A DNA stretch of 64,000 bases, from contig AP031356.1 of assembly GCA_037833965.1 (NCBI GenBank), positions 3,928,501-3,992,500 on the forward strand, written 5' to 3'. Source of the DNA: Marchantia polymorpha subsp. ruderalis (lineage: Eukaryota > Streptophyta > Marchantiopsida > Marchantiales > Marchantiaceae). The first letter of the stretch is position 1. Every line of letters begins with the position of its first letter. Shown in pieces: positions 25,231 to 55,327 of this stretch. Both the position numbers and the translations under genes were made by a program. The notes beneath the pieces were generated by a model, which saw only the letters and a list, made by a program, of their open reading frames with translations, was not told the DNA's origin and did no database searches.

Positions 25231-25266
25231 CGTAGTGCAGTGTAGTGCTAGGTAGGACTTAGAAGG

Positions 25267-25295
25267 TATAAAATAGTTCCAGGCGTTTTGCCTGG
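25267..25295 (+). promoter_or_regulatory. LTR promoter TATA box with adjacent hairpin
   Basis: TATAAAATAG at 25267-25276 is followed by the inverted repeat CCAGGC-gtttt-GCCTGG at 25279-25295. The same pair occurs in every LTR here (37533, 47159, 49889, and TATAAAGTAG near 58960). The transcription start is expected near 25300, so the long frame lies in U3 and the last ~0.94 kb is R/U5. Confidence 0.7.
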
Positions 25296-26259
25296 GGTTC
25301 TTTCCCATCAGAAGTGCAGATCAGGAACCCATTTCCTTTGCGTGTTTGTGTCCTTGAGTTCTGTCACCACGCACGAGGAGTTACAACTTAGCGTTCCGCA
25401 TCTTGTAGCTGAAGGCCTTCGGCCGAATGTTCAGAGCTAGTACATTGGTTAGAGACTTGAGTAGTTTGGAACTGCACCTGCGGGTGACTGCCGATGCTCA
25501 GAGCCAGTGACTAGTTAGATACTTGAACAGTTTCGCCCCTACACCTTCGAGTGTTTCTTTCTGATTGTACTCCTTGGGATTTTTCCCCTGAATGCCAAAG
25601 TGAAGTTTTGCTACTTCGTGTAAGCCTTGGTTGTAAATTCAGGTTACGCTGCAGCAGGTGCCTTGAGGGTAACCCCTGTAGTATTTCTGGGAATGACAAG
25701 TGCCTAAGAATTCAAACTCTTCAATAGACTGTTGTTGTGTTACTGGAATGTTTCACAGTGAGTCCTTCAGTGCGGACCTGTGTTCTCTGCGCGTTTTGTG
25801 AGTTGAGAGTGTTGTTCACCGCGTAGGAGTGACTTCGATCCGAAGTAGGCAGTCCAAACCGGGTTTCCTACACTAGCAGCAAGCTAGTGGAAGTGTTGTA
25901 AAAGCCGGAGTTGGAAGTCACTGCCCGCAGCTTTGCCGAGTGTGCTCGCGAGAGACTTTCCCCCTGAAATCTTGAAGTAGAGGTCCTAACGGATCTCTGG
26001 GTTGTGTTTCTGTAGTTTCAGGTGTGTGTGTGTGTGTGTTACGCTGCACTGTGCGACCTCCGAGTGCGCTCCGAGTGGACACTTGCAGTATTTCTGGGAG
26101 TGACAGTCGCCTGAGAATTCAAACTCCTCAATAGTCTGTTAAAACGTGACACTTTGTACCCTGTGTGTTCCTCTGTCCCTGTGGGTTCGACCTTTCTACC
26201 ACTATATTGCAGTTTTAGCCTTTAGTGGGTTATTACATAAGAAGCCGACAACTTCTTTT

Positions 26260-32036: not shown

Positions 32037-34676
32037 TGTGGTACCCCACTTTTGGCAATTTTGAGGAAATTAAAACATTTTTTGAAAAATTGTACCCTGG
32101 CAGCATTGTAAATAGCCTTCGGTACATCAAAACAGAGTGAATCCGGAAGATCGCGGGGATTCTCGAGGGATCTTGTAGAATCTGGGATTTGGGGTGCAGC
32201 AGTAAGGACAGGCACCACCCTCCCTGCGAGCTCTGCAGTTAGGACCCCTACGACGCAAGGCGCAAAACCCGCCTTCGGAGGTTGCGTCCGCGGCTGTAGG
32301 GAAACCCTCCATAATTAGGTCAACCCTCGGGCGCCTTGACCAAGTTAGGGTCCCGTTGGAAAGAGCTCGACGCACTGATTCCAACGAGTCCAAGAACGCT
32401 TGGAACGGATGAGGACTTAGGGAGTTATCACTACTGGAAGAAACGGAGGCGGTCGCCTACGGCGGAAGGAGTTCGCCACCGGCGCGAATTCCGCCTACGC
32501 GGAAGGGGGAATCAAGTTTTGTCCTATGCGCGGACGAAGGCGTTCGCCTGTGCACAGGCGAAGTAGGGTTAGGGGGGGCGCGAAGTCCGCCTACGCACAG
32601 GCGCTCGCCTGTGCACAGGCGCTTCGGCGTCGGCGGAAAATCCGCCTTGGGCCCTAGAAATGCGCCTTGTGAGGTAGAAAGTGTACGGCGCCTTCCGCGC
32701 CAGCGCAGCGCCGCGTACGGCGGAAGAGCCGCCAGAGTAATCAAATCGGTACGGACCATGCGGACGGGACGGGTGGATGCGCTCTTGGACGGACGGAATT
32801 GCGGCGGCGGAAGCGGCGACGAAGAGACAAGGAATGGACAGACTGGACGGAGACGGCTGACCACGGTCAACGCCTTCCGCGCCAGCGCAGCGCCGCGCAC
32901 GGAATTCGCCTGCGCACAGGCGAACGCCTGTGCACAGGAGGATGTTCAAGTTCCGTGCCGGCGGAGCATCCGCCGAGGCTTCTGCCTGCGCACAGGCAGG
33001 AGTTGAATTTTTGTCCGACATGCGGACACACGCGTCAAGGCAGAGGGGGATTGGCCGAGGGGCGGTACGAACAAGTGTACCGCGCAAGGCGGAAAACTCG
33101 CCTTCGGCGCTACGCCCCCATGTCCGCGGGGTAATACGCTCGCGGAGTTCAAATCCGCCAATTCGAGCGTGAGAGTTTAATCGACGACGGCGGAGCGTGA
33201 AGCCGCGCGTGAGAGCGAAGACCGTTCCAGCGTACAGCCGGCGCGGCCATCAAGTGAGACGTTCTTCACGAGCAAGAGCCGACCATGACCTTCGACCGGG
33301 CGGCGGAGAACGTCCCATTCTTGAATTCGCGATTCCAATCTCTTGTGCGCGCTGCGCGCATCCATCTGCTGGCTGCTGAACATTCTCGACGTCGCCGCAC
33401 AGGAGATTTCTTGTTGATTGAAGGAGAAGTGAATGCGCGTGATTTGGAATTGAGGGCGATTAGAGTTTGCCGAGAGAGAAAGAAGCCCGGGCGGTGCGGA
33501 AGTAGAATGAGCGGGCGAGCGAACCCCAGGAACGCAATGACGAGACCGAGCCGATTGCGGATGGTGCCACTTCGCCTACCACAGAACGGGCTGCGCGCTT
33601 TCGAGGAGCGCTTAATAGCAAGAAAGCTTGATTTCTTGCTATGGGGATGGAACTACATCTGTGCGAATATGGTGCGCGAGTGGCTAGAGCCACAGGGACC
33701 ACCCTCGCGCGGATTGCGTCCGCATGTTGATCGGTGGACAGTCCAAGATTGGGCGCAGGCGTTGGGAAGATGTGCTGGCATGCCAGGGCATCTCCTTTTC
33801 GACAGTGAGAGCATCAAGGTGACCAAGCAGGAAGAGGCGCAATTTGTGGAGCTGTTCAAGACCGGGAGGTCTACCAAGAATGGGTACAGGACCCGTGATT
33901 ACAAGGATCGATTTCGCCGGACTTTGTCCGCGGCGCTGATGCAATTACTGCAGCCGCACCGCGCCTGCTACATCACATTGTGGCAGGTTTCTTTTGTGGA
34001 GTGCGTCATCGAGGGAACTCCAATTCACTGGGCGAGCATCCTGCACAGGGTGATGCGACAGCACGCGTTTGAGGAGAAGGGGGGAACTCTAAACCATCTT
34101 TCTCCTTTCCTCATCAATTTTTATCGACAGCGGAATTGTTTGACAGCGGCGGAGCTGGAACATTTTCCGCCATTGTCCATCGACCATCCCGGGAAGTATA
34201 TGCGGGAGAATGAGGTCGACACTGATGCAGAGGAGTCACCGACTTCTACCCCATCAAGACGGAGGGACGAAGGGAGACACACTCCTGCAGCACGAGTGCC
34301 GCGGAAGCGGCGATGGAGGGAAGAGTCTGAAGAGGAGCAGCATCAAGAACCCTCTGCTCCCATTCGACCGCGGCCGCTGTGCGAGCCATACAGCCGGCCG
34401 AAGCAGAAGGCACGCAGACTGGTGTTACCAGCCGACAGTGCGGACACGGCGACGATTGCGACGGAGCAAGGAAGTGCGTCGCCAGAGAGGCATGAGGAAG
34501 CGCGGACGACCGCAGGAGCGACGGGCCACGCTGCAACCTTGACGGGAGAGAGGCCGCCTACGGGCCAAGGGCCTCCGGAGTTACCACGTGCGATGCGGAC
34601 AGATGTTCCGTTTGCGCACAGACGAGCCTCCGCGGACGGACGAGCCTCCGCGGACCGGCGAACACAAGTGGACGTG
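32037..34676 (+). repeat. Element 1 3' LTR, left part
   Basis: It matches 20876-23517 of the 5' LTR at a constant offset of 11161 bp, then breaks off at acgtg where element 2 begins. The rest of this LTR resumes at 48137. Confidence 0.92.
33285..34676 (+). pseudogene. U3-encoded ORF in element 1 3' LTR, first 464 codons (split by element 2)
   Basis: It starts at ATG 33285 and is open up to the insertion point. The frame picks up in the same phase at 48137 and runs to 49852 (571 codons), so before the insertion this LTR held an uninterrupted frame of about 1035 codons. This half holds the basic N-terminus, the globular region with paired Trp/Arg-rich motifs, and the start of the Pro/Arg-rich linker. 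It is nearly identical to the 5' LTR copy. The recorded split is due only to element 2. Confidence 0.75.
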
Positions 34677-37600
34677 TGTGGTACCCCACTTTTGGCAATT
34701 TTGAGAAAATTAAAACATTTTTTGGAAAAATTGTACCCTGGCAGCATTGTAAATTGCCTTCGGTACATCAAAACAGAGTGAATCCGGAAGATCGCGGGGA
34801 TTCTCGAGGGATCTTGTAGAATCTGGGATTTGGGGTGCCGCAGCAAGCACAGGCACCACCCTCCCTGCGAGCTCCGCAGTTAGGATCTCTACGGCGCAAG
34901 GCGCAAAACCCGCCTTCGGAGGTTGCGTCCGCGGCTGTAGGGAAACCCCCGTAATTAGGTAAACCCTCGGGCGCCTTGACCAAGTTAGGGTCCGGTTGGA
35001 AAGAGCTCGACGCGCTGATTCTAACGAGCCCAAGAGCGCTTGGAACGGACGAGGACTTAGGGAGTTATCGCTACTGGAAGAAACGGAGGCGGTCGCCCAC
35101 GGCGGAAGGAGTTCGCCACCGGCGCGAATTCCGCCTACGCGGAAGGGGGAATCAAGTTTTGTCCTATGCGCGGACGAAGGCGTTCGCCTGTGCACAGGCG
35201 AAGTAGGGTTAGGGGGGGCGCGAAGTCCGCCTACGCACAGGCGTTCGCCCGCGCACAGGCACTTCGGCGTCGGCGGGAAATCCGCCTTGGGCCCTAGAAA
35301 TGCGCCTTGTGAGGTAGAAAGTGTACGGCGCCTTCCGCGCCAGCGCAGCGCAGCGTACGTCGGAAGAGCCGCCAGAGTAATCCAATAGGTACGGACCGTG
35401 CGGACGGCACGGGTGGATGCGCTCTTGGACGGACGGAGTTGCGGCGGCGGAAGCGCCGACGGAGAGACAAGGAACGGACAGACTGGACGGAGACGGCTGA
35501 CCACGGTCAACGCCTTCCGCGCCAGCGCAGCGCCGCGGACGAAATTCGCCTGCGCACAGGCGAACGCCTGTGCACAGGAGAATGTTCAAGTTCCGCACCG
35601 GCGGAGGATCCGCCGAGGCCCCTGCCTGCGCACAGGCAGGAGTTGAATTTTTGTCCGACATGCGGACGCACGCGTCAAGGCAGAAGGAGATTGGCCGAAG
35701 GGCGGTACGAACAAGTGTACCGCGCAAGGCGGAAAACTCGCCTTCGGCGCTACGCCCCCATGTCCGCAGGGTGACACGCTCGCGGAGTTCAAATCCGCCA
35801 ATTCGAGCGTGAGAGTTTAATCGACGACGGCGGAGCGTGAAGCCGCGCGTGAGAGCGAAGACCGTTCCAGCGTACAGCCGGCGCGGCCATCAAGTGAGAC
35901 GTTCTTCACGACCAAGAGACGACCATGACCTTCGACCGGGCGGCGGAGAGCGTCCCATTCTTGAATTCGCGATTCCAATCTCTTGTGCGCGCTGCGCGCA
36001 TCCATCTGCTGGCTGCGGACCATTCTCGTCGTCGTCGCACAGGAGATTTCTTGTTGATAGAGGGAGAAGTGAGTGCGCGTGATTTGGAATTGAGAGCGAT
36101 TAGAGTTTGCCGAGAGAGAAAGAAACGCGGACAGTGCGGAAGTAGAATGAGCGGGCGAGCGAACCCCAGGAACGCAATGACGAGACCGAGCAGATTGCGG
36201 ATGGTGCCACTTCGCCTGCCGCAGAACGGGCTGCGCGCTTTCGAGGAGCGCTTAATAGCAAGAAAGCTCGATTTCTTGCTATGGGGATGGAATTACATCT
36301 GCGCGAATATGGTGCGCGAGTGGCTAGAGCCACAGGGACCACCCTCGCGCGGATTGCGTCCGCATGTTGACCGGTGGACAGTCCAAGATTGGGCGCAGGC
36401 GTTGGGAAGATGTGCTGGCATGCCAGGGCATCTCCTTTTCGACAGCGAGAGCATCAAGGTGACCAAGCAAGAAGAGGACGTGCAGCCCCACTCGGGGCAG
36501 TCGCCAACGCAATCAATGGCGACTGAAATTCTCCACTCGGATGATGACGACGGAGGCTCCACGGAAGAAATGTCAGGAGCAGAAGACACCGAGGAGGAGG
36601 AGGAGGAAATTGTTGGAGCGCCGGCGGCGGCGCTCTCTGAGCAGGTGATTCCGTTGCTGCGGTACTTGGATCGCAAGGTCGATAAATACGCCGACCCACT
36701 CCAGCCGGGATCTTACATCGAGTTAGTGCGCAGGAGGACTCGCACTAAAGTCCACACCAGCAAGCTATTAGCTAGAGTGGACCAGGAGTTGAGGGACTTG
36801 AAGGAGAAGCATGAGTGCTTGTGGGGACAGTACAAGCTTAATCAGAAATTCTACAAGCACTCCGAGAAGATGAAGGATGAGAAACTGGGCGAGCTCACCA
36901 AGGAGCAGGTGAAGGTCAAGGAGGCACTCAACTCTGAGCAGGCCCAGAATCGGATTTTGTCAGAGGAGCTCGTGCGACAGACGCGGTTGTTGGAACAATG
37001 TCAGCTCGCACGGCAGGCGGATGAAGAATTAATCCGCAGGTTACAGTCAGAGTGTGGCGAATTGAGGGCGCAACGTGCTGAAGCCGAATCGCAATTAGTG
37101 ACCATTGAAGAGGATCGCAGGAAGGAGGCGGATCGCACGAAGGTGGAGACGGCGAGGCGAGTCGCCCACTGTCTCAAGGGCTACGCCCACTGGGAAGTGA
37201 AGGCGCAGGAGAAACTCACACTGCGTGAGTTTGAATTGCGCGCAGCCGGGTTGTTGTCAGGCGACAGTAGGAGTCGGCGGAAGGTAGCGAAGAAGCTCGA
37301 GGCCTTTCTGTCGAAGGCACAGGATACCATGTCCGCCATCGAGGGGGAGGTGTCCGCGGCGTTGCAGCGGTTGGGACTGCGCAGTCGAGCGGAAGAGTGG
37401 CAGGGTAGGGAGTTAGTGCGCGGCAGTCGGCCGCGCAGGAGACGTAGTACAGGTTCCGCGGAGTGTAGTGTAGCGTGGTTCCGTGCAGGCGTGTAGCGTA
37501 GTGCAGTGTAGTGCTAGTTAGGATTTAGAAGGTATAAAATAGTTCCAGGCGTTTTGCCTGGGGTTCTTTCCCATCAGAAGTGCAGATCAGGAACCCATTT

Positions 37601-38505
37601 CCTTTGCGTGTTTGTGTCCTTGAGTTCTGTCACCACGCACGAGGAGTTACAACTTAGCGTTCCGCATTTTGTAGCTGAAGGCCTTCGGCCGAATGTTCAG
37701 AGCTAGTACATTGGTTAGAGACTTGAGTAGTTCGGATCTGCACCTGCGGGTGACTGCCGATGCTCAGAGCCAGTGACTAGTTAGATACTTGAACAGTTTC
37801 GCCCCTACACCTTCGAGTGTTTCTTTCTGATTGTACTCCTTGGGATTTTTCCCCTGAATGCCAAAGTGAAGTTTTGCTACTTCGTGTAAGCCTTGGTTGT
37901 AAATTCAGGTTACGCTGCAGCAGGTGCCTTGAGGGTAACCCCTGTAGTATTTCTGGGAATGACAAGTGCCTGAGAATTCAAACTCTTCAATAGACTGTTG
38001 TTGTGTTACTGGAACGTTTCACAGTGAGTCCTTCAGTGTGGACCTGTGTTCTCTGCGCGTTTTGTGAGTTGAGAGTGTTGTTCACCGCGTCTGAGTGACT
38101 TCGATCCGAAGTAGGTAGTCCAAACCGGGTTTCCTACACTAGCAGCAAGCTAGTGGAAGCGTTGTAAAAGCCGGAGTTGGAAGTCACTGCCCGCAGCTTT
38201 GCCGAGTGTGCTCGTGAGAGACTTTCCCCCTGAAATCTTGAAGTAGAGGTCCTAACGGATCTCTGGGTTGTGTTTCTGTAGTTTCAGGTGTGTGTGTGTG
38301 TGTGTGTTACGCTGCACTGTGCGACCTCCGAGTGCGCTCCGAGTGGACACTTGCAGTATTTCTGGGAGTGACAGTCGCCTGAGAATTCAAACTCCTCAAT
38401 AGTCTGTTAAAACGTGACACTTTTTACCCTGTGTGTTCCTCTGTCCCTGTGGGTTCGACCTTTCTACCACTATATTGCAGTTTTAGCCTTTAGTGGGTTA
38501 TTACA
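34677..38505 (+). repeat. Element 2 5' LTR (3829 bp)
   Basis: It has TGTGGTACC...TTATTACA ends, the U3 frame at 35925-37496, and a TATA box at 37533 followed by the CCAGGC/GCCTGG hairpin. Relative to element 1 it lacks about 1535 bp between a point near 36477 and the acidic-segment coding region. Confidence 0.92.
35925..37496 (+). CDS. U3-encoded ORF in element 2 5' LTR (523 aa)
   Basis: Complete frame from ATG 35925. Residues 1-184 match the N-terminal half of the longer element 1 protein (RPHVDRWTVQDWAQALGRCA and so on). An abrupt in-frame junction (KVTKQEE|DVQPHSGQ) then removes about 512 residues: the second half of the globular region and the whole Pro/Arg-rich linker. After it come an acidic patch (DDDDGG, EEEEEE) and a coiled coil of roughly 180 residues (residues about 270-455, many Glu/Lys/Gln/Leu heptads), ending FRAGV. 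There is no membrane segment, signal peptide, zinc knuckle or known enzyme motif. The function is unknown; a structural or RNA-binding accessory role is only a guess. It lies upstream of the LTR TATA box, so in genomic RNA it would be supplied by the 3' LTR copy. Confidence 0.72.
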   Translation: MTFDRAAESVPFLNSRFQSLVRAARIHLLAADHSRRRRTGDFLLIEGEVSARDLELRAIRVCRERKKRGQCGSRMSGRANPRNAMTRPSRLRMVPLRLPQNGLRAFEERLIARKLDFLLWGWNYICANMVREWLEPQGPPSRGLRPHVDRWTVQDWAQALGRCAGMPGHLLFDSESIKVTKQEEDVQPHSGQSPTQSMATEILHSDDDDGGSTEEMSGAEDTEEEEEEIVGAPAAALSEQVIPLLRYLDRKVDKYADPLQPGSYIELVRRRTRTKVHTSKLLARVDQELRDLKEKHECLWGQYKLNQKFYKHSEKMKDEKLGELTKEQVKVKEALNSEQAQNRILSEELVRQTRLLEQCQLARQADEELIRRLQSECGELRAQRAEAESQLVTIEEDRRKEADRTKVETARRVAHCLKGYAHWEVKAQEKLTLREFELRAAGLLSGDSRSRRKVAKKLEAFLSKAQDTMSAIEGEVSAALQRLGLRSRAEEWQGRELVRGSRPRRRRSTGSAECSVAWFRAGV

Positions 38506-38528
38506 TAAGAAGCCGACAACTTCTTTAT

Positions 38529-38546
38529 TGGCGCCGCTGCCGGGGA
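38529..38546 (+). other. Primer binding site of element 2
   Basis: TGGCGCCGCTGCCGGGGA, the same 18 bases as element 1, here 23 nt after the LTR end. Confidence 0.75.
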
Positions 38547-38592
38547 CAGTTGCGTCAACACCGGGGTTTTTACGAGCAGCCATGCTCGGTGA

Positions 38593-41424
38593 ATGTCGAC
38601 TGGGGCTGGCGGGAGCAATCTAAGTGCTAGGGCTGTCCGCAAGTTCCGACGAGATTCAGAGAAGGCCGTGGAAGAGACACGGCGTCAAAACAAGAAAACA
38701 CCAAGAAGAGTACCTAAGCCTAGTTCGGCCGACATCCTTGGGGAACCTACCCCCGGCGACTCGGAACCAAACTTGGTGCTTACAGTTCTACTAGATATTC
38801 CTTGCACGGACCCGCCTAGTGAAGTAGAACCGACCGCCCGAGGACCGTCGACAGACACACTGATGGCGGACGGACAAGCCAATGTGCGGCTACCTCAGCC
38901 GATTACTAAACATTCCTACCCGAAGTACAAAGGGAGTGGGGATGACGACGATGCAGATTCATACATCAAGTTATTCGAGTCGGTGTCTATTGCCAATCGC
39001 GAGATCGCAGACGACGACCGACTAAGGATCTTTCCAAGCCTTCTGCGGAAGAAAGCGAGGAGTTGGTATAATCACGAGAGCATCGATCCGACTGGGTTGA
39101 CAACATGGGCCCAGCTGAAGGAGAAGTTCCTTCGTCGCTTTCGCGAGCTCGGCTACGACAGCCGGGTTTTGACGAAGTTACGTAATTTGCAGCGAGAGAA
39201 GAAGGAGAGTCTGCGTGACTACACTGAGAGATTTCTGGACCTCCTCGACAGAATACCGAAAACAGGACCAGGGTCCCCTTTCTCGGTACAACAAGCTGTG
39301 GATTGGTACGTGACCGGTTTAACTCGGGAGATGGAGACTTTTTGCCGACGCAGCAAGTGCGACACTATTGAGGATGTGATTGCATCGGCAGAAGCCTTCG
39401 AAACTTCCACTCTCAACCGAAGAGGGAGAGAGAGACGGGAGTCGAAGGAGCGCAAACCGAAAGGAGGGCGAAGACGGCGTAGAGGTACAACTCCGTCATC
39501 GGAGGAATCGTCTTCGGACGAGAATCGTTCTTCATCCGAAGAAGAGGAAACCTCATCGTCGGAGGAGGAGAAGAAGAGGAAGAAGCATGGGTCAGCAAAG
39601 AAAAAGGGCATCCGACGAGTGACTACGGACAGAGCGCCGGGAGATATAGCTTCGAAGATGGAGACCCTGGTGAAGGACTTCGCCGATCTCAAGGTTCAAG
39701 TGGTAGGCGGGCATGATCGCAGAAAATCACCCGGGAGAGTGCGAGCGAACTTATGGTGTACTACGTGCGGGGCGGTGGGACATGCAAACACCGAGTGCCT
39801 TACCACCCGGCCGTCATATCCAGTCAACGCAGTAGAGTGGGCGCAACCGTACTATGGAGAGCACCCTCAGTACTATGGAGAGGCTAGCGAAGAGACAGCC
39901 TACGCCGTCCAGTCGGTGCCTACCCCTCCTGCAGTTTCAGCAATGCAAGTCCCACGATATATTCCGGTGGATCGGGCCACTACGGTACCTGTGAGGCGGA
40001 GAGCACCTCCAGGGACGTTTGACCCACCGCCACCGCGAGCTTGTTATAATTGCGGGGAAGTTGGGCACTTCTCACCGCAGTGTCCCCATCCAAAAAGGCG
40101 AAACGATTATGCTCCGACATGTAGTAATTGCAAGAAGGTCGGGCACACTGCGCCAGAGTGTGATCAGCCACCAGTCCCTCGGCCAGTGGTACGATTTGTG
40201 AACACTCCTGCCAAGGAGGACGTGCAAGTTAACCAGGTCGAAGTAGGTTCAGACGGGGATGGCGAAGACGAAGAATGGCCGGCTGAAGAGGTTATGTGCG
40301 CACGGGTCGAAACTCGTAGCTCCAAGAAATCCAAGGAGCAAGAGCGTGACACTCGCAAGCACGAACGGAGAACCGCCGACCGGACGGGAAAAGGAAAGGA
40401 GAAGACATCCAGCAAGTCCGACTCGCGACCTGCTCGGAAGTCTTCGGCTACGCGGGAGGCACCAGCAGTGCGCCCCCAGACAGCAGTCGAGGACGAGCCA
40501 GTGCGCCTACTGAAACGGGACTATGCTCCGGATATCCGCAACGAGGTAACCAACCTGTTGAAGGAAGCGATCCGCACGCGAAAGGACCCACCGCGGCCAG
40601 ACTTGACATCCTCCCTTGGGGCGAAGTTGGCAGCCACCGTGGAACCTCGCAGAGCGTCGCCGACCCCGGCGACCCAACGCGCCCACTATGACTTGGTTGA
40701 AGATCTCGGGAGTCGAAAAGTGAACATTACGTTCAAGCAGCTCTTGGAGGACAATAAGACGTATCGGAGAATGTTGATGCTTTCGCTACGGCATCCGCGG
40801 AAGCCGCGCGCATCCACATCCTCTCAAGTATATCAAGTGGAGAGCGAAGACCAAGGGCCACCCGAGATCGATGTGGAGATAGCAGGATGTTGTGTACGCA
40901 GAGTGCCAATCGACTCTGGATCAGGAGTCAACATAATGACGGAGGATACAGCGAGAGCCTTGGGGTTCAGTCAATACGAACCCTCGAAGCGTGTGTTGAG
41001 ATTAGCGGATCAGACGCGGAGAATGCCTGCAGGTATGCTGCGCAATGTCAAGACAACCATCGGGGGTGCGGACTTTCGGTTGACGTATATCATCCTTCAG
41101 CCGATGATGAAGCAGGGCTATGACGTTCTGCTCGGGCGACCATGGCTATATGGTGCACAAGTCAGATGTGATTGGCGAAGACATCGCCTTAAGTTTCCTC
41201 ACCCTTCGGAACCGACCAAAACCATTACGGTGCCCTGGAATAGGGTCAGGCACGAAGGAGAGACCCCATCGACAAGTGCAGGTTACACATCGGGCGAGGA
41301 CAGTGAGTCGACCGCGCGATCGGATTCCAGTGGTACCGAATCCGATTACTTCGTAGGATTCGTTGCCTGCTGTTCGGTGGAAGAAGAAGAAGAGACGGAA
41401 GCTATTCAGCCGGAAGACGAATAG
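38593..41424 (+). CDS. gag-pro: Element 2 gag-protease (943 aa), ending TAG CAA TTA
   Basis: ATG 38593 opens a 943-codon frame with the same domain order as element 1: gag core (about 130-240), Arg/Ser/Glu-rich stretch, three CCHC knuckles, then aspartic protease (IDSGSGVNIM, LLGRPWL) and an acidic tail. A 13-codon upstream frame starting at ATG 38582 overlaps the start and is kept in both elements. The stop TAG (41422-41424) is followed by CAATTA, matching the CARYYA consensus that makes tobamovirus UAG codons leaky. The reading frame stays open for 946 more codons, so about 1890 residues of Gag-Pro-Pol could be made by occasional readthrough. Confidence 0.92.
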   Translation: MSTGAGGSNLSARAVRKFRRDSEKAVEETRRQNKKTPRRVPKPSSADILGEPTPGDSEPNLVLTVLLDIPCTDPPSEVEPTARGPSTDTLMADGQANVRLPQPITKHSYPKYKGSGDDDDADSYIKLFESVSIANREIADDDRLRIFPSLLRKKARSWYNHESIDPTGLTTWAQLKEKFLRRFRELGYDSRVLTKLRNLQREKKESLRDYTERFLDLLDRIPKTGPGSPFSVQQAVDWYVTGLTREMETFCRRSKCDTIEDVIASAEAFETSTLNRRGRERRESKERKPKGGRRRRRGTTPSSEESSSDENRSSSEEEETSSSEEEKKRKKHGSAKKKGIRRVTTDRAPGDIASKMETLVKDFADLKVQVVGGHDRRKSPGRVRANLWCTTCGAVGHANTECLTTRPSYPVNAVEWAQPYYGEHPQYYGEASEETAYAVQSVPTPPAVSAMQVPRYIPVDRATTVPVRRRAPPGTFDPPPPRACYNCGEVGHFSPQCPHPKRRNDYAPTCSNCKKVGHTAPECDQPPVPRPVVRFVNTPAKEDVQVNQVEVGSDGDGEDEEWPAEEVMCARVETRSSKKSKEQERDTRKHERRTADRTGKGKEKTSSKSDSRPARKSSATREAPAVRPQTAVEDEPVRLLKRDYAPDIRNEVTNLLKEAIRTRKDPPRPDLTSSLGAKLAATVEPRRASPTPATQRAHYDLVEDLGSRKVNITFKQLLEDNKTYRRMLMLSLRHPRKPRASTSSQVYQVESEDQGPPEIDVEIAGCCVRRVPIDSGSGVNIMTEDTARALGFSQYEPSKRVLRLADQTRRMPAGMLRNVKTTIGGADFRLTYIILQPMMKQGYDVLLGRPWLYGAQVRCDWRRHRLKFPHPSEPTKTITVPWNRVRHEGETPSTSAGYTSGEDSESTARSDSSGTESDYFVGFVACCSVEEEEETEAIQPEDE

Positions 41425-44265
41425 CAATTAACTGTGGGACTGGGAAGGAGTGAGACGAGTCACACTGAGGGCATTGTCGACCCTAGTGACTGTCATGAAG
41501 TACAACTCAGTCCCGGCAAATGCTTGAAGGTATCAAGCGCAGTGAGAGGAGACGAGCTAAGGAAAGTACAGGCGTTCCTTAGCCACTATGTCGACGTCTT
41601 CGCCTGGAAGATCGAGGACATGAAGGGGATACCTGCACGGTATGGGGAACACCGTATCGATTTACTGGACGACTCAGTACCCATACGACAGCGCCAGTAT
41701 CGCCTCAACCCAAAGTACTCCTTGCTAGTGAAAGAGGAGATAGATAAGTACTTGAGCGCTGGTATTATTTATCCTGTGCTCAGCAGCGAGTGGGTGTCGC
41801 CGATTGTTATCGTACCTAAGAAGTTGACGGGTAAGATACGAGTGTGTCAGGATTTCCGGAAGTTGAATGCAGCAACACGCAAGGATCATCACCCGTTACC
41901 ATTCACGGATGCCATTCTAGACCATGTCGCAGGACATGAATGTTATAGCTTCCTGGATGGGTTCTCAGGTTACAATCAGGTGTCTATCCGTGAACAGGAC
42001 AAGGATAAAACTACGTTCACAACCGACTGGGGAACTTACGCATACCACAAGATGCCCTTCGGTCTGTGCAACGCGCCTGCCACCTTTCAACGGATGATGA
42101 CCAATATCTTTCAGGAACAACTGAGGAAGTTCCTGGAGATATTCATAGATGACTTCTGTGTCTTTGGGAAGCGGTCTGAACACCTAAGTCACTTGAAGCA
42201 GACCTTCGATAAATGTAGAGAGAGCAGTTTATCACTGCATCCCGAGAAGTGCTTTTTCTTCATGACTAGTGGGATCTTGTTGGGTCATCGGGTCTCGGCA
42301 GAAGGCATTGCGGTGGACATCGAGAAGGTCAAGGTTATACTCGAGCTTGAGCCACCCACGAATCTAAGAGAGCTGCGAGCATTCCTGGGTCATGTGGGCT
42401 ACTACCGAAGATTCATACACATGTATGCAATACTGGCGGCGGACCTGACCAAGTTGTTGAAGAAGGACGAGCCTTATGCTTGGGGTGCGAACCAGCAGAC
42501 AGCATTTGAAGCTCTGAAAGCGAAACTCACGACTGCTCCCGTACTAAGGAGTCCAGACTGGAATCGACCATTCCATGTTTACGTTGACACTTCGGCATTC
42601 GCCATCGGTGTAGTACTAAGTCAAAAGGATGACAACAAAAAGGACTACCCGATCTACTTCGCGAGCCGACAGCTGTCTCTAGCAGAGCGGAAGTACACCA
42701 CGACGGAGAGAGAAGCGTTGGGGATGGTGTACTCCTGTAAAAAGTTTCGTCACTACTTAATCTGCTACGAGTTTGTGTTCCATGTGGACCACTACGCATT
42801 GCAACACCTAGTCAAGAAAGCCGACCTATCCGGTCGGATTGCCAGGTGGGTGTTGTTACTACAAGAGTTCACCTACACAGTCCAGACCAGGAAAGGGGTG
42901 CACCACGAAAATGCGGATTACTTGTCCCGATTATGGACCCAGCCGACAGAGGAGGAATTGGTGGACGATTTTCCAGATGAAGAGTTATTTCAGTTGTCTG
43001 CAGGACATGAGTCCCGCTATGCCGACCTGTATCGATATCTGCTAACCCTCCAGTGTCCCGTAGGCATGGATTTGGAACAGCGAACTGTCTTTATTCATAA
43101 GGCAGGCCCGTATCAACTCCAGCAGGGGGTTTTGTTCAAGAAGATGGCGGATGAGCGCTTATGCAGATGCCTGGAGGAATCAGAAGTACCAAGAATAGTG
43201 AGTGCGATGCATACAGAGGAGGCGGGTGGACACTATGCCACCAGGAACACGGTCACAAAGATCCTAAATGCGGGATATTGGTGGCCGACCATGTTTAAGG
43301 ATGTTCTCGATTACATCCGCAAGTGCGACAGTTGCCAGAGGACGGGGAGACCGACGCCTACAACACGCTGGCCTCTGACTCCCATCATGCCTCTAGCACC
43401 TTTCGAAAAGTGGGGTATTGACTTTGTAGGGCCGATACAACCAGTGACTAGAAGTACACGAAGGCGCTACATTCTGGTAGCAACGGACTACGCCACCAAA
43501 ATGGTAGAGGCCAGGGCCACCAGAAGGGATGATGCTGCCACAGTGGCAGCATTCTTGTTCGAGTCAATCATCACACGCTATGGATGTCCCTTAGAGCTAG
43601 TCAGCGACCGGGGCACGCATTTTCTGAATCAGATCATCGAAGATCTGACACGGTATTTCCACATCAAGCACCGGAAGACTACTCCATACAATCCCAAGGC
43701 AAATGGACTGACGGAGAAGTCCAATGGACTGCTGTGTAAAATACTACTCAAGGTCACGGTGAATCACGCTCACGACTGGGATACGAAGCTAGCAGCCGCT
43801 CTATGGGCGTACCGCACAGCTGAGAAGATCACGACCAAACAGACACCATACTTTCTGGTGTATGGGCAACACCCGATCCTCCCAATCGAATTTGAAGTAC
43901 CCACCCATCGAACGATGGATTTGCAGAGGATGGGCGCAGAGGAGAGTCAGCTCTACAGGTTACAGGAGGTCATGCTGCTGGATGAGCGGAGAAGAGACGC
44001 CGAAGATCGCACCAGGAAAATCCAGCTCCGCCGAAAGGAGAGATACGATAAAAAGATCAAACCGGTACTCCTGCGGGCAGGTGATTTGGCATTGCTCTAC
44101 GACAGCAGGCATGCCAGATTCCCAGGCAAACTGCACCTAAGGTGGATGGGACCTTACAGGGTTGTCGAAGTCTTCCCGAATGGATCCATCCAACTTGCGG
44201 ACCTGGCCGGCGATTTGTTAGGCACCCGAGTGAACGGGTGGCGGTTGAAGAAATACCACCTGTGA
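41425..44265 (+). CDS. pol: Element 2 pol: reverse transcriptase, RNase H, integrase
   Basis: 946 codons in the same frame as gag, immediately after its TAG; there is no ATG near the start. RT: CQDFRKLNAATRKDHHPLPF, YSFLDGFSGYNQV, MPFGLCNAPATFQRM, catalytic FIDD with Asp codons at 42148 and 42151. RNase H: VYVDTSAFAIG, YTTTEREALG. Integrase: zinc finger H..H..CDSCQ, and catalytic Asp at 43420, Asp at 43606 and Glu at 43714, giving D-x61-D-x35-E as expected. The C-terminus has the GPY motif (GPYRVVEVFPNG) and ends VNGWRLKKYHL without a chromodomain. All catalytic residues are present and there is no internal stop, so it is probably functional. Confidence 0.93.
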   Translation, partial: QLTVGLGRSETSHTEGIVDPSDCHEVQLSPGKCLKVSSAVRGDELRKVQAFLSHYVDVFAWKIEDMKGIPARYGEHRIDLLDDSVPIRQRQYRLNPKYSLLVKEEIDKYLSAGIIYPVLSSEWVSPIVIVPKKLTGKIRVCQDFRKLNAATRKDHHPLPFTDAILDHVAGHECYSFLDGFSGYNQVSIREQDKDKTTFTTDWGTYAYHKMPFGLCNAPATFQRMMTNIFQEQLRKFLEIFIDDFCVFGKRSEHLSHLKQTFDKCRESSLSLHPEKCFFFMTSGILLGHRVSAEGIAVDIEKVKVILELEPPTNLRELRAFLGHVGYYRRFIHMYAILAADLTKLLKKDEPYAWGANQQTAFEALKAKLTTAPVLRSPDWNRPFHVYVDTSAFAIGVVLSQKDDNKKDYPIYFASRQLSLAERKYTTTEREALGMVYSCKKFRHYLICYEFVFHVDHYALQHLVKKADLSGRIARWVLLLQEFTYTVQTRKGVHHENADYLSRLWTQPTEEELVDDFPDEELFQLSAGHESRYADLYRYLLTLQCPVGMDLEQRTVFIHKAGPYQLQQGVLFKKMADERLCRCLEESEVPRIVSAMHTEEAGGHYATRNTVTKILNAGYWWPTMFKDVLDYIRKCDSCQRTGRPTPTTRWPLTPIMPLAPFEKWGIDFVGPIQPVTRSTRRRYILVATDYATKMVEARATRRDDAATVAAFLFESIITRYGCPLELVSDRGTHFLNQIIEDLTRYFHIKHRKTTPYNPKANGLTEKSNGLLCKILLKVTVNHAHDWDTKLAAALWAYRTAEKITTKQTPYFLVYGQHPILPIEFEVPTHRTMDLQRMGAEESQLYRLQEVMLLDERRRDAEDRTRKIQLRRKERYDKKIKPVLLRAGDLALLYDSRHARFPGKLHLRWMGPYRVVEVFPNGSIQLADLAGDLLGTRVNGWRLKKYHL

Positions 44266-44290
44266 GTGTTCGCGTGGGCGCTCACAATTG

Positions 44291-44302
44291 AGGAGGGGGG
44301 CA
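44291..44302 (+). other. Polypurine tract of element 2
   Basis: aggaggggggca lies directly upstream of the 3' LTR start at 44303. Confidence 0.8.
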
Positions 44303-47300
44303 TGTGGTACCCCACTTTTGGCAATTTTGAGAAAATTAAAACATTTTTTGGAAAAACTGTACCCTGGCAGCATTGTAAATAGCCTTCGGTAAATCAAAAC
44401 AGAGTGAATCCGGAAGATCGCGGGGATTCTCGAGGGATCTTGTAGAATCTGGGATTTGGGGTGCCGCAGCAAGCACAGGCACCACCCTCCCTGCGAGCTC
44501 CGCAGTTAGGATCTCTACGGCGCAAGGCGCAAAACCCGCCTTCGGAGGTTGCGTCCGCGGCTGTAGGGAAACCCCCGTAATTAGGTAAACCCTCGGGCGC
44601 CTTGACCAAGTTAGGGTCCGGTTGGAAAGAGCTCGACGCGCTGATTCTAACGAGCCCAAGAGCGCTTGGAACGGACGAGGACTTAGGGAGTTATCGCTAC
44701 TGGAAGAAACGGAGGCGGTCGCCTACGGCGGAAGGAGTTCGCCACCGGCGCGAATTCCGCCTACGCGGAAGGGGGATTCAAGTTTTGTCCTATGCGCGGA
44801 CGAAGGCGTTCGCCTGTGCACAGGCGAAGTAGGGTTAGGGAAGGCGCGAAGTCCGCCTACGCACAGGCGTTCGCCCGCGCACAGGCACTTCGGCGTCGGC
44901 GGGAAATCCGCCTTGGGCCCTAGAAATGCGCCTTGTGAGGTAGAAAGTGTACGGCGCCTTCCGCGCCAGCGCAGCGCAGCGTACGTCGGAAGAGCCGCCA
45001 GAGTAATCCAATAGGTACGGACCGTGCGGACGGCACGGGTGGATGCGCTCTTGGACGGACGGAGTTGCGGCGGCGGAAGCGCCGACGGAGAGACAAGGAA
45101 CGGACAGACTGGACGGAGACGGCTGACCACGGTCAACGCCTTCCGCGCCAGCGCAGCGCCGCGGACGAAATTCGCCTGCGCACAGGCGAACGCCTGTGCA
45201 CAGGAGAATGTTCAAGTTCCGCACCGGCGGAGGATCCGCCGAGGCCCCTGCCTGCGCACAGGCAGGAGTTGAATTTTTGTCCGACATGCGGACGCACGCG
45301 TCAAGGCAGAAGGAGATTGGCCGAAGGGCGGTACGAACAAGTGTACCGCGCAAGGCGGAAAACTCGCCTTCGGCGCTACGCCCCCATGTCCGCAGGGTGA
45401 CACGCTCGCGGAGTTCAAATCCGCCAATTCGAGCGTGAGAGTTTAATCGACGACGGCGGAGCGTGAAGCCGCGCGTGAGAGCGAAGACCGTTCCAGCGTA
45501 CAGCCGGCGCGGCCATCAAGTGAGACGTTCTTCACGACCAAGAGACGACCATGACCTTCGACCGGGCGGCGGAGAGCGTCCCATTCTTGAATTCGCGATT
45601 CCAATCTCTTGTGCGCGCTGCGCGCATCCATCTGCTGGCTGCGGACCATTCTCGTCGTCGTCGCACAGGAGATTTCTTGTTGATAGAGGGAGAAGTGAGT
45701 GCGCGTGATTTGGAATTGAGAGCGATTAGAGTTTGCCGAGAGAGAAAGAAACGCGGACAGTGCGGAAGTAGAATGAGCGGGCGAGCGAACCCCAGGAACG
45801 CAATGACGAGACCGAGCAGATTGCGGATGGTGCCACTTCGCCTGCCGCAGAACGGGCTGCGCGCTTTCGAGGAGCGCTTAATAGCAAGAAAGCTCGATTT
45901 CTTGCTATGGGGATGGAATTACATCTGCGCGAATATGGTGCGCGAGTGGCTAGAGCCACAGGGACCACCCTCGCGCGGATTGCGTCCGCATGTTGACCGG
46001 TGGACAGTCCAAGATTGGGCGCAGGCGTTGGGAAGATGTGCTGGCATGCCAGGGCATCTCCTTTTCGACAGCGAGAGCATCAAGGTGACCAAGCAAGAAG
46101 AGGACGTGCAGCCCCACTCGGGGCAGTCGCCAACGCAATCAATGGCGACTGAAATTCTCCACTCGGATGATGACGACGGAGGCTCCACGGAAGAAATGTC
46201 AGGAGCAGAAGACACCGAGGAGGAGGAGGAGGAAATTGTTGGAGCGCCGGCGGCGGCGCTCTCTGAGCAGGTGATTCCGTTGCTGCGGTACTTGGATCGC
46301 AAGGTCGATAAATACGCCGACCCACTCCAGCCGGGATCTTACATCGAGTTAGTGCGCAGGAGGACTCGCACTAAAGTCCACACCAGCAAGCTATTAGCTA
46401 GAGTGGACCAGGAGTTGAGGGACTTGAAGGAGAAGCATGAGTGCTTGTGGGGACAGTACAAGCTTAATCAGAAATTCTACAAGCACTCCGAGAAGATGAA
46501 GGATGAGAAACTGGGCGAGCTCACCAAGGAGCAGGTGAAGGTCAAGGAGGCACTCAACTCTGAGCAGGCCCAGAATCGGATTTTGTCAGAGGAGCTCGTG
46601 CGACAGACGCGGTTGTTGGAACAATGTCAGCTCGCACGGCAGGCGGATGGAGAATTAATCCGCAGGTTACAGTCAGAGTGTGGCGAATTGAGGGCGCAAC
46701 GTGCTGAAGCCGAATCGCAATTAGTGACCATTGAAGAGGATCGCAGGAAGGAGGCGGATCGCACGAAGGTGGAGACGGCGAGGCGAGTCGCCCACTGTCT
46801 CAAGGGCTACGCCCACTGGGAAGTGAAGGCGCAGGAGAAACTCACACTGCGTGAGTTTGAATTGCGCGCAGCCGGGTTGTTGTCAGGCGACAGTAGGAGT
46901 CGGCGGAAGGTAGCGAAGAAGCTCGAGGCCTTTCTGTCGAAGGCACAGGATACCATGTCCGCCCTCGAGGGGGAGGTGTCCGCGGCGTTGCAGCGGTTGG
47001 GACTGCGCAGTCGAGCGGAAGAGTGGCAGGGTAGGGAGTTAGTGCGCGGCAGTCGGCCGCGCAGGAGACGTAGTACAGGTTCCGCGGAGTGTAGTGTAGC
47101 GTGGTTCCGTGCAGGCGTGTAGCGTAGTGCAGTGTAGTGCTAGTTAGGATTTAGAAGGTATAAAATAGTTCCAGGCGTTTTGCCTGGGGTTCTTTCCCAT
47201 CAGAAGTGCAGATCAGGAACCCATTTCCTTTGCGTGTTTGTGTCCTTGAGTTCTGTCACCACGCACGAGGAGTTACAACTTAGCGTTCCGCATTTTGTAG

Positions 47301-48131
47301 CTGAAGGCCTTCGGCCGAATGTTCAGAGCTAGTACATTGGTTAGAGACTTGAGTAGTTCGGATCTGCACCTGCGGGTGACTGCCGATGCTCAGAGCCAGT
47401 GACTAGTTAGATACTTGAACAGTTTCGCCCCTACACCTTCGAGTGTTTCTTTTTGATTGTACTCCTTGGGATTTTTCCCCTGAATGCCAAAGTGAAGTTT
47501 TGCTACTTCGTGTAAGCCTTGGTTGTAAATTCAGGTTACGCTGCAGCAGGTGCCTTGAGGGTAACCCCTGTAGTATTTCTGGGAATGACAAGTGCCTGAG
47601 AATTCAAACTCTTCAATAGACTGTTGTTGTGTTACTGGAACGTTTCACAGTGAGTCCTTCAGTGTGGACCTGTGTTCTCTGCGCGTTTTGTGAGTTGAGA
47701 GTGTTGTTCACCGCGTCTGAGTGACTTCGATCCGAAGTAGGTAGTCCAAACCGGGTTTCCTACACTAGCAGCAAGCTAGTGGAAGCGTTGTAAAAGCCGG
47801 AGTTGGAAGTCACTGCCCGCAGCTTTGCCGAGTGTGCTCGTGAGAGACTTTCCCCGTGAAATCTTGAAGTAGAGGTCCTAACGGATCTCTGGGTTGTGTT
47901 TCTGTAGTTTCAGGTGTGTGTGTGTGTGTGTGTTACGCTGCACTGTGCGACCTCCGAGTGCGCTCCGAGTGGACACTTGCAGTATTTCTGGGAGTGACAG
48001 TCGCCTGAGAATTCAAACTCCTCAATAGTCTGTTAAAACGTGACACTTTTTACCCTGTGTGTTCCTCTGTCCCTGTGGGTTCGACCTTTCTACCACTATA
48101 TTGCAGTTTTAGCCTTTAGTGGGTTATTACA
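44303..48131 (+). repeat. Element 2 3' LTR (3829 bp)
   Basis: Matches the 5' LTR at a constant offset of 9626 bp with no net indel. Differences seen include t/c and t/a changes in the first 80 bp, gg/aa near 44840, and single changes near 46650, 46964, 47452 and 47856. Confidence 0.93.
45551..47122 (+). CDS. U3-encoded ORF in element 2 3' LTR (523 aa)
   Basis: Second complete copy, differing from the 5' LTR copy at only two residues (Glu/Gly in the coiled coil and Ile/Leu near the end). This is the copy that would lie inside the element's own genomic transcript, downstream of pol and of the polypurine tract. Domain layout as at 35925: N-terminal half-domain, acidic patch, coiled coil. How it would be translated from a gag-first RNA is unclear; a subgenomic or spliced RNA, or transcription from inside the element, would be needed. 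Confidence 0.72.
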   Translation: MTFDRAAESVPFLNSRFQSLVRAARIHLLAADHSRRRRTGDFLLIEGEVSARDLELRAIRVCRERKKRGQCGSRMSGRANPRNAMTRPSRLRMVPLRLPQNGLRAFEERLIARKLDFLLWGWNYICANMVREWLEPQGPPSRGLRPHVDRWTVQDWAQALGRCAGMPGHLLFDSESIKVTKQEEDVQPHSGQSPTQSMATEILHSDDDDGGSTEEMSGAEDTEEEEEEIVGAPAAALSEQVIPLLRYLDRKVDKYADPLQPGSYIELVRRRTRTKVHTSKLLARVDQELRDLKEKHECLWGQYKLNQKFYKHSEKMKDEKLGELTKEQVKVKEALNSEQAQNRILSEELVRQTRLLEQCQLARQADGELIRRLQSECGELRAQRAEAESQLVTIEEDRRKEADRTKVETARRVAHCLKGYAHWEVKAQEKLTLREFELRAAGLLSGDSRSRRKVAKKLEAFLSKAQDTMSALEGEVSAALQRLGLRSRAEEWQGRELVRGSRPRRRRSTGSAECSVAWFRAGV

Positions 48132-48136
48132 ACGTG

Positions 48137-49852
48137 GATCTACGCTTACGCGTGGGAAGGAGCAGTCCGCCTGTGCACAGGACACCTCCACACGTGCCGC
48201 CTGTGCACAGGCAAGAATCACCCCCGTTCCAACGTAGGAAGGGGAAGGAGCCGGCGGAAGAACCGCCTACGAGACACCGGCCCTCGGGGCCAGACCCACC
48301 GGCGCACCACGCGCCGCAATTTGCGCCTTCGGCGCCAGGGCCTTCGAGCCGAGGAGATACAAGCAGGGAGCGTGCGGAGGCCGCACCATCGGCGGGAAGT
48401 CCGCCGATAGATGCGCCTTCGGCGGTAGGGCCTATAGGCCAAGGGACATCGGGCGAGCGGCCCCCGGCCATGTCGCCTTCGGCGATAGATGTCCGCGGCG
48501 CTACGCCTGCGGCGGACAAGGCGCCGGCAATCGCGCCTGCGCACGGGCCGGGCACAGCCCCCACGGACCGATCAAGGGAGCAGCAACAGACGGTGGAGCG
48601 GAGTGACTGTCCGCGGGATGAAATTTCGATGCGCGATGCGCAATCAAACCCCGCGCAGCCACCCTCCGCTCGATCGCCTTCGGCGGCGGGCAACGGCGGC
48701 AGAGAGGACGCGGTAGACAACCAACAAGCGAGCGACGGGGATGCCGCACGGGTACATTCGCCTTCCGCCTTAGACATTTTGGCGACGAGCAGCGAGGCTG
48801 CAGCCTTGCCTTCGCAGGCAGCACACGTCGATGACGTGCAGCGCCACTCGGGGCAGTCGCCGACGCAATCAATGGCGACTGAAATTCTCCACTCGGATGA
48901 TGAAGACGGAGGCTCCACGGAAGAAATGTCAGGAGCAGAAGACACCAAGGAGGAGGAGGAGGAAATTGTTGGAGCGCCGGCGGCGGCGCTCTCTGAGCAG
49001 GTGATTCCGTTGCTGAGGTACTTGGATCGCAAGGTCGATAAATACGCCGACCCACTCCAGCCGGGATCTTACATCGAGTTAGTGCGCAGGCGGACTCGCA
49101 CTAAAGTCCACACCAGCAAGCTGTTAGCTAGAGTGGACCAGGAGTTGAGGGAATTGAAGGAGAAGCATGCATGCTTGTGGGGTCAGTACAAACTTAATCA
49201 GAAATTCTACAAGCACTCCGAGAAGATGAAGGATGAGAAACTGGACGAGCTCACCAAGGAGCAGGTGAAGGTCAAGGAAGCACTCATTTCTGAGCAGGCC
49301 CAGAATCGGATTTTGTCAGAGGAGCTCGTGCGACAGACGCGGTTGTTGGAACAATGTCAGCTCGCACGGCAGGCGGATGAAGAGTTAATCCGCAGGTTAC
49401 AGTCAGAGTGTGGCGAATTGAGAGCGCAACGTGCTGAAGCCGAATCGCAATTAGTGATAATTGAAGAGGATCGCAGGAAGGAGGCGGATCGCACGAAGGT
49501 GGAGACGGCGAGGCGTGTCGCCCACTGCCTCAAGGGCTACGCCCACTGGGAAGTGAAGGCGCAGGAGAAACTCACACTGCGTGAGTTTGAATTACGCGCA
49601 GCCGGGTTGTTGTCAGGCGACAGTAGGAGTCGGCGGAAGGGAGCAAAGAAGCTCGATGCCTTTCTGTCGAAGGCACAGGATACCATGTCCGCCCTCGAAG
49701 TGGAGGTGTCCGCGGCGTTGCAGCGTTTGGGACTGCACAGTCGAGCGGAAGATTGGCAGGGTAGGGAGTTAGTGCGCGGCAGTCGGCCGCGCAGGAGACG
49801 TAGTACAGGTTCCGCGGAGTGTAGTGTAGCGTGGTTCCGTGCAGGCGTGTAG
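48137..49852 (+). pseudogene. U3-encoded ORF in element 1 3' LTR, last 571 codons
   Basis: Second half of the frame split by element 2, open from the insertion point to TAG at 49850-49852. It begins with a Pro/Arg/Ala-rich, probably disordered linker containing PPVHRQ-type repeats encoded by the GC palindromes. An acidic patch follows (TEEMSGAEDTKEEEEE), then a coiled coil corresponding to residues about 790-970 of the full product, ending WFRAGV. There is no known enzyme domain. No stop interrupts it, unlike the 5' LTR copy, so this LTR held the longest intact version in the window before element 2 arrived. Confidence 0.72.
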
Positions 49853-55100: not shown

Positions 55101-55327
55101 TGGGACATCGGGCGAGTAGCCTCCGGCTATGTCGCCTTCGGCGATAGACGCCTTCGGCGCTACGCCTGTGGCGGACAAGGCGCCGGTAATTGCGCCTGCG
55201 CACAGGCCAGACACAGCCCTCGCGCAGGACCGATCCAGGGAGCAAGATCTAACGGAGGAGCGAATTGTCTGTTCGCGGGATGAAATCCGGGTGCGCGATG
55301 CGCAATTACACCCCGCGCAGACACACT
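52184..55327 (+). repeat. Element 3, left LTR fragment (degenerate)
   Basis: It starts TGTGGTACCCC and is clearly more diverged than the element 1 and 2 LTRs. It is cut within the U3 frame region at ccccgcgcagacacact. It includes a perfect CGCCTACGCGTAGGCG palindrome near 52638. Confidence 0.82.
53424..55034 (+). pseudogene. Degenerate U3 ORF in element 3 left LTR
   Basis: It starts at ATG 53424 like its relatives. TGG codons have become TGA at 53787 and TAA at 53889, and a further stop lies at 55032. The regions between match the N-terminal and globular parts. A dead copy. Confidence 0.75.

What the first reader, a model, noticed from the sequence alone, without database searches (positions are those of the whole stretch)
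32037..49852. A ~1000-codon gene lies inside the LTR (U3) of this retrotransposon family
Seen: every LTR contains a long frame starting at the same ATG and placed before the LTR TATA box: 1035 codons when the two halves in element 1's 3' LTR are counted together, and 523 in each element 2 LTR. Known: LTRs normally carry only control signals; the mouse mammary tumour virus sag gene is a rare U3 gene, and plant Ogre/Athila elements have extra frames but in the internal region. Inferred: this is an accessory protein (globular half plus coiled coil) at the 3' end of the genomic RNA, copied to the 5' LTR on each replication cycle, where it could also be expressed without the rest of the element.
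Basis: partly seen in the sequence, partly recalled or inferred. Interest (0 to 1): 0.88.

Follow-up and report, generated by a model that had tools for sequence, protein, structure and literature searches.

The report
Protein gene inside retrotransposon LTRs
In a liverwort genome, an abundant jumping gene carries a large protein-coding gene inside its repeated end sequences, which normally hold only control signals, and natural selection has kept much of that protein intact, so the element very probably uses it.

Summary
Two nested Ty3-type elements (target duplications CTAAG, ACGTG) carry a long frame inside the LTR, upstream of its TATA box. In 12 of 20 LTRs fetched from the same genome (named protein relatives only in Marchantia polymorpha) it is intact at 1,045-1,050 codons; these were chosen hits, not a random sample. 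In the window, element 2 holds an in-frame deletion form (523 codons); element 1 is frame-shifted in its 5' LTR and interrupted in its 3' LTR. Variable sites fall 25/22/92 on codon positions; omega is about 0.06 in the N-terminal domain (p 5e-13) and C-terminal part (p 7e-10), weak in the linker, unproven for codons 1-84. The ATG conserved between families is codon 85. A divergent family, with LTRs 99.96% identical, has the gene in the same place. Best reading: a sag-like accessory gene in a plant Ty3 element, a new variant of a known kind. No fold, Pfam family, transcript or function was found. U3 and linker also hold clusters of a 16-bp palindrome (54 of 54 window sites in LTRs; about 6,700 exact matches per strand genome-wide), possibly the protein's own binding site.

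The parts
20876..26237 (+). Element 1, 5' LTR (TSD CTAAG at 20871-20875)
   Evidence: LTR ends and TSD
22124..24382 (+). LTR frame in element 1's 5' LTR, 752 codons, then frame-shifted; the C-terminal part continues in the frame 24250-25230
26324..31999 (+). Element 1 gag-protease, RT-RNase H and integrase frames (26324-29158, 29168-30670, 30692-31999)
   Evidence: Pfam on the element 2 counterparts
32037..34676 (+). Element 1, 3' LTR, first piece, preceded by a purine tract
33285..34676 (+). First piece of the LTR frame of element 1's 3' LTR, cut by element 2
34677..38505 (+). Element 2, 5' LTR (TSD ACGTG at 34672-34676 and 48132-48136)
35185..35638 (.). Cluster of the 16-bp palindrome in U3 upstream of the gene (same clusters in the other LTRs)
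35925..37496 (+). LTR gene of element 2, 523 codons, central deletion in frame; conserved ATG (codon 85) at 36177
37533..37540 (+). TATA box, 36 nt after the end of the gene
   Evidence: position in a complete LTR
38529..38546 (+). PBS-like sequence
   Evidence: no tRNA compared
38593..41424 (+). Element 2 gag with zinc knuckles and protease
41434..44265 (+). Element 2 RT, RNase H, integrase
44303..48131 (+). Element 2, 3' LTR, 11 differences in 3,829 bp from the 5' LTR
45551..47122 (+). LTR gene of element 2, copy in the 3' LTR, 523 codons
48137..50859 (+). Element 1, 3' LTR, second piece; LTR frame continues to 49852
52184..59483 (+). Third copy, LTR remnants only (52184-55324 and 55328-59483), flanked by CAACA; frame 56531-58843

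Best explanation
The frame is a real accessory gene of a high-copy Ty3-type LTR retrotransposon family of Marchantia, encoded entirely in U3. Shown: two parts of the protein are under strong purifying selection, the linker between them is loosely constrained, and the gene sits in U3 in two families that differ greatly at silent sites. Follows from the standard LTR replication scheme (established knowledge, not tested here): because U3 lies before the promoter, a full genomic RNA carries the gene once, near its 3' end, and reverse transcription copies it into both new LTRs. Inferred: it is made from a separate mRNA, by splicing or from a promoter upstream in U3 (as with MMTV sag), starting at the conserved ATG of codon 85; and it acts as a soluble, self-associating accessory factor in nucleic-acid or chromatin work rather than as an envelope, since no membrane segment was found.
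For: LTR ends fixed by TSDs, purine tract and PBS-like site in the window and in four further insertions. Codon positions of variable sites 25/22/92. Omega 0.24 overall, p 7e-17; 0.06 in the N-domain and C-terminal part against a context-aware neutral expectation. Pairwise omega 0.05-0.25 among seven full-length copies. Between elements 1 and 2 the gene's omega (0.19 and 0.17 in two parts) is like gag (0.18). Divergent family L054/L055: 753-codon frame intact in both LTRs, TATA after it, same purine tract, N-domain dN 0.39 against dS 1.64. Conserved ATG context in 11 of 11 copies inspected. No transmembrane stretch.
Against: No transcript or protein evidence. No Pfam family and no usable fold. 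Between elements 1 and 2 the gene is less constrained than RT and INT (0.07, 0.08). Codons 1-84 show no significant selection (7 replacement, 7 silent, p 0.11). Omega towards the more distant L047 is 0.32-0.39. One antisense frame also gives low omega (0.14-0.28), as overlap geometry allows, but it has 14 stops in L032. Many divergent relatives carry stops. Copies were picked by similarity and only intact ones entered the codon tests. No splice acceptor, donor or second promoter could be pinned down.
Confidence: 0.78

Rival explanations
1. A chance or passenger open frame in GC-rich LTR DNA, without coding role.
For: The linker is repeat-rich and loosely constrained; shorter antisense frames of 226-354 codons also occur there.
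Against: Codon-position bias and omega; frame kept in a divergent family with silent sites strongly diverged; frame-breaking antisense stops.
Confidence: 0.03
2. The product is not a separate protein but an N-terminal part of Gag: RNA started upstream in the 5' U3 reads the frame and is spliced into gag.
For: One public gene model, MARPO_0006s0274 (partial), joins a piece of such a frame, a Lys/Glu/Arg/Asp-rich stretch and gag. gag starts 87 nt after the 5' LTR.
Against: A single model, possibly a prediction error; the frame has its own conserved stop before the TATA box in the copies; the conserved C-terminal end would be lost in that model.
Confidence: 0.1
3. On origin, compatible with the best explanation: a sense accessory frame that once lay between pol and the 3' LTR was engulfed when the LTR boundary moved outwards.
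For: Sense additional ORFs between pol and the 3' LTR are known in plants (PMC7264820), and this frame starts about 1.25 kb into the LTR, just past pol.
Against: In the bounded copies examined the frame is always inside the LTR; no element with an internal copy was seen, but no search designed to find one was answered.
Confidence: 0.3

Closest known systems
MMTV superantigen gene (sag)
   Same: Accessory gene within the LTR, making the LTR unusually long; read from the 3' LTR copy (PMC3026287, passages).
   Different: An animal betaretrovirus gene in a 1.3-kb LTR; no sequence relation or superantigen role is claimed here. This LTR is 5.4 kb, the gene about 1,050 codons, the host a plant; expression unknown.
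Additional ORFs of plant LTR retrotransposons (env-like of Athila/Bagy2; antisense ORFs of Grande, RIRE2, Retand)
   Same: Extra conserved protein of unknown function in high-copy families.
   Different: The review describes them in the internal region, mostly between pol and the 3' LTR (PMC7264820, parts 1-2 read); here the gene is in U3, sense, without a transmembrane stretch.
Retrosat2/RIRE3/RIRE8 ORF0
   Same: Long-LTR plant Ty3 elements with an extra sense ORF.
   Different: ORF0 is described as upstream of the gag-pol ORF (PMC3485330, passages), not as part of the LTR.
[not shown]
   Same: Ty3 elements of the same host without additional RNase H (PMC10508981, passages); no additional RNase H was matched here either.
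   Different: Whether these are the same families was not tested; the passages seen do not mention an LTR gene.
VANC anti-silencing proteins of VANDAL transposons
   Same: Only a possible analogy: an element-encoded protein plus clustered short motifs in the element's own non-coding DNA (PMC5735166, PMC10398659, starts of abstracts in the listing).
   Different: DNA transposons; no relation shown; binding not tested here.

Membership tests
Ty3/gypsy LTR retrotransposon | RT-RNase H-integrase order, Ty3-type gag | tested here: met
   Pfam Retrotrans_gag, Ty3_capsid, RVT_1, RT_RNaseH, Integrase_H2C2, rve in that order
Ty3/gypsy LTR retrotransposon | LTR pair with TSD, PPT and PBS | tested here: met
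   PBS by position and look only
[not shown]
   The own-genome RT search did not complete and no reference RT set was at hand
[not shown]
   No such Pfam match in element 2 pol; shared with other lineages, so not decisive
MMTV sag-like LTR gene (as a way of working) | Selected coding frame within U3 | tested here: met
MMTV sag-like LTR gene (as a way of working) | Own spliced or internally promoted mRNA | not testable with these tools
   No RNA data
MMTV sag (as a homologue) | Sequence relation to sag | tested here: not met
   No Pfam match for the gene or 10 relatives; relatives named only from Marchantia
Plant internal additional ORF | Located between the LTRs | tested here: not met
   Frame lies inside the LTR
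Envelope-like protein | Transmembrane segment | tested here: not met
   Highest 19-residue hydropathy 1.14
Retand-type Transposase_28 protein | PF04195 domain, antisense | tested here: inconclusive
   The gene is sense; no PF04195 match (genome search, whose controls were silent too)
VANC-like anti-silencing factor | Sequence-specific binding to clustered motifs of its own element | not testable with these tools
   Motif clusters exist; binding unknown

The most novel reading that the evidence does not exclude
The LTR is a self-contained regulatory module: it encodes a self-associating protein and holds the palindromic sites that this protein binds, both in non-coding U3 and, in frame, in the protein's own linker. 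The protein opposes silencing or organises the chromatin of LTRs genome-wide, and LTR-only remnants keep gene and sites after the rest of the element is lost. I know of no such system in an LTR retrotransposon.
Probability: 0.18. Interest if true: 0.93.

Novelty: new variant of a known kind. Interest (0 to 1): 0.8.

Why it matters
LTRs are treated as control DNA, and the additional-ORF literature seen here describes internal regions, so such a gene can be missed or annotated as a host gene; the annotated Marchantia gene Mp_8g15400 is a C-terminal part of such a frame. A large selected gene in U3 means that each insertion carries two copies, that an LTR-only remnant can keep a gene, and that promoter and coding constraints share the same DNA. 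It occurs in a genetically tractable model plant with dozens of intact copies and thousands of related motif sites, so its role can be tested directly.

Tried and rejected
Led nowhere: relatives in viral contigs (none); Pfam on the gene and on 10 relatives (only chance-level or low-complexity matches such as Extensin_1 at 0.0002 in P0009); PDB by sequence (nothing but one match at E 0.75); two structure predictions, mean pLDDT 35.9 and 38.4, so no fold search was made; Transposase_28 and Transposase_32 in the genome (no match, but all controls were silent too, so uninformative); splice-donor motifs in the leader (several weak candidates, none convincing); tRNA and tandem-repeat scans (nothing relevant).

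Considered and rejected: a mistaken LTR boundary (TSD, purine tract and PBS-like site agree in several insertions); the antisense frame as the real gene (14 or more stops in each antisense frame of L032; other copies not printed); a gene captured by one copy (it is in the same place in two divergent families). The in-frame joining of all eight central deletions examined was not used as evidence, because the query was itself such a deletion form, which biases what is found. An AXG93-type or reference gene model was not taken as proof of expression.

Not answered: the own-genome search with RT (see below), so the existence of Ty3 relatives without the LTR gene was not tested.
Full report
What is there. 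The window lies in contig C7 of a 241-Mb, 9-contig genome. Protein relatives that bear a name all come from Marchantia polymorpha: 11 of 11 hits; 30 of 36, the other 6 unnamed; 31 of 32, the other 1 unnamed (each search scored only the roughly 8,000 candidates sharing most words). The host is therefore that liverwort or very near it. Element 1 (20876-50859, TSD CTAAG) is split by element 2 (34677-48131, TSD ACGTG), which sits in element 1's 3' LTR. Element 2 has gag with zinc knuckles, RT, RNase H and integrase in Ty3 order. A third copy at 52184-59483 consists of LTR remnants flanked by CAACA.

The gene is in the LTR. LTR ends are fixed by TSDs, by the purine tract before the 3' LTR and by the PBS-like stretch after the 5' LTR. 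Four further insertions show the same ends with TSDs GCGCC, CAGAG, AGGCA and TCTAC; the last is an array of four LTRs about 11.2 kb apart. In a complete 5,408-bp LTR (L032) the frame runs 1247-4399 and the only TATAAA is at 4436. The whole gene is thus in U3, upstream of the promoter. LTR pairs differ by 0 of 5,388 (L037/38), 8 of 5,412 (L035/36), 14 of 5,394 (L039/40), 11 of 3,829 (element 2) and 21 of 5,305 sites compared (element 1): these are recent insertions.

How often intact. Of 25 LTR sequences examined (20 fetched, 5 from the window), 17 have one open frame from the common start to the common end. Twelve are full length: L031-L039, L041, L042 (1,045 or 1,050 codons) and L050 (1,049). 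Five are in-frame deletion forms: L045 (712), L046 (637), L047 (661) and the two LTRs of element 2 (523 each). Not intact: L040, L043, L044, L048, L049, element 1's 5' LTR and the two pieces of the third copy. The fetched set came from the best and the last hits, so it is no random sample. In one search, 58 of 82 scored places have a stop-free frame of at least 1,043 codons, counted stop to stop. More distant relatives found with P0009 and P0003 mostly carry stops.

Selection. Seven full-length copies were used: L032, L035, L037, L039, L041, L042 and L050. They come from different loci, except that L041 and L042 lie 10.8 kb apart and could be the two LTRs of one old insertion. Pairwise NG86 omega among them is 0.05-0.25 at dS 0.026-0.058. 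Variable columns fall 25, 22 and 92 on codon positions 1, 2 and 3; the only indels inside the frame are 15 and 3 nt, though intactness was a condition of choice. A neutral expectation from the substitution spectrum at non-coding LTR sites of five copies, with CpG and CHG context, is 70% replacement changes. Observed: 50 replacement, 91 silent, omega about 0.24, p 7e-17. By part: codons 1-84, 7/7, p 0.11; N-domain (85-335), 4/32, omega 0.06, p 5e-13; linker (336-705), 36/28, omega 0.54, p 0.011; C-terminal part, 3/24, omega 0.06, p 7e-10. The p-values treat changes as independent. Of the other five frames, antisense frame 1 also gave low omega (0.14-0.28), as expected when its third positions face those of the sense frame, but it has 14 stops in L032; the remaining four were above 1 where defined. 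Between elements 1 and 2 the gene's omega is 0.19 and 0.17 for two parts, like gag (0.18) and higher than RT-RNase H and integrase (0.07, 0.08). Towards the more distant L047 it is 0.32-0.39.

A second family. L054 and L055 are 10,330 bp apart and differ at 2 sites in 4,567 aligned bp. Each has an uninterrupted 753-codon frame with the TATA box after it; the purine tract stands before L055's LTR. The sequence after L054's LTR matches the leader and gag start of the window family, and that before L055's LTR matches the integrase end. Its TSD was not checked. The N-domain differs from L032 by dN 0.39 and dS 1.64; silent sites of the C-terminal part are saturated. By blastn the U3 between the first 60 bp or so and the frame does not align with the window, while pieces of the frame and R-U5 do. 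The gene was in U3 before these families split, or moved there twice.

The start. In 11 of 11 sequences inspected an ATG in the context AACGC[AG]ATG stands at the place of codon 85, and in L053 and L054 stops close the frame a short way upstream of it (L053 is itself broken further on). With the lack of demonstrable selection on codons 1-84, codon 85 is the likelier start, and the upstream part may be leader.

Domains. N-domain of about 225-250 residues, basic; a linker of about 400 residues rich in Pro, Ala and Ser; a charged C-terminal part with short heptad stretches and an Arg-rich tail; no transmembrane stretch. Two AlphaFold2 runs stayed under mean pLDDT 40 and show helices only: the fold is unknown.

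The palindrome. The 16-bp palindrome CGCCTGTGCACAGGCG, with up to 3 mismatches, occurs at 54 places in the window: 54 in LTRs, 0 in the internal regions, 0 outside. Counted on both strands with CGCCTGYGCACAGGCG there are 112 matches, against a mean of 0.8 in whole-window shuffles, which do not keep the higher GC of the LTRs. In L032 six sites lie in U3 before the gene and six in the linker, all six in one codon phase, where they encode Pro-Val-His-Arg. Genome-wide there are 6,736 and 6,529 exact matches on the two strands, and 0 for the reversed pattern. L053 and L054 have none; L052 has one site in the frame and four of a related palindrome, CGCCTACGCATAGGCG, after its TATA box, which may belong to a nested element. 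Two uses are open: a site for a dimeric protein, or RNA stem-loops (z -6.7 for 35535-35645, -2.6 for 35160-35270). Neither is shown, and its absence from L054 means it is not needed for the gene to be kept.

Mechanism. Shown: coding, selected, in U3, in both LTRs, in two families. By the standard replication scheme the genomic RNA, started after the TATA box, has the gene only near its 3' end, and reverse transcription places it in both LTRs. [quoted passage not shown] One public gene model, MARPO_0006s0274 (partial), joins a piece of such a frame to gag; it may be a splice form or an annotation error. The annotated gene Mp_8g15400 is the C-terminal part of such a frame.

Noticed in passing
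LTRs in the window, e.g. 35185-35638 and 48168-48549: Clusters of a 16-bp palindrome CGCCTG(T/C)GCACAGGCG in U3 and, in one codon phase, in the gene's linker; 54 of 54 window sites are in LTRs and about 6,700 exact matches per strand occur genome-wide.
   Followed up: partly
L031-L034 (G000:C5:11.01-11.05 Mb): Four LTRs about 11.2 kb apart, with the 5-bp repeat TCTAC only at the two outer ends: a tandem element array.
   Followed up: partly
L043-L049 and element 2: Eight central deletions with different end points all leave the N-terminal and C-terminal parts in one frame; the query was itself such a form, so this may be a search bias.
   Followed up: partly
window 52184-59483: Copy made of LTR remnants only, flanked by CAACA, the internal region lost.
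   Followed up: no
window 5173-15322 and 60218-62645: Several units of about 2.5 kb, roughly 84-92% alike, with no frame of 200 codons or more.
   Followed up: no
G000:C1, about 2.32/2.71/3.08 and 2.44/2.85/3.19 Mb: The same relatives recur in triplets at similar spacing, which suggests large repeated segments on this contig or an assembly effect.
   Followed up: no
P0056 (MARPO_0006s0274, partial) and P0037 (Mp_8g15400): Public protein models that contain pieces of the LTR gene; the first joins it to gag.
   Followed up: partly
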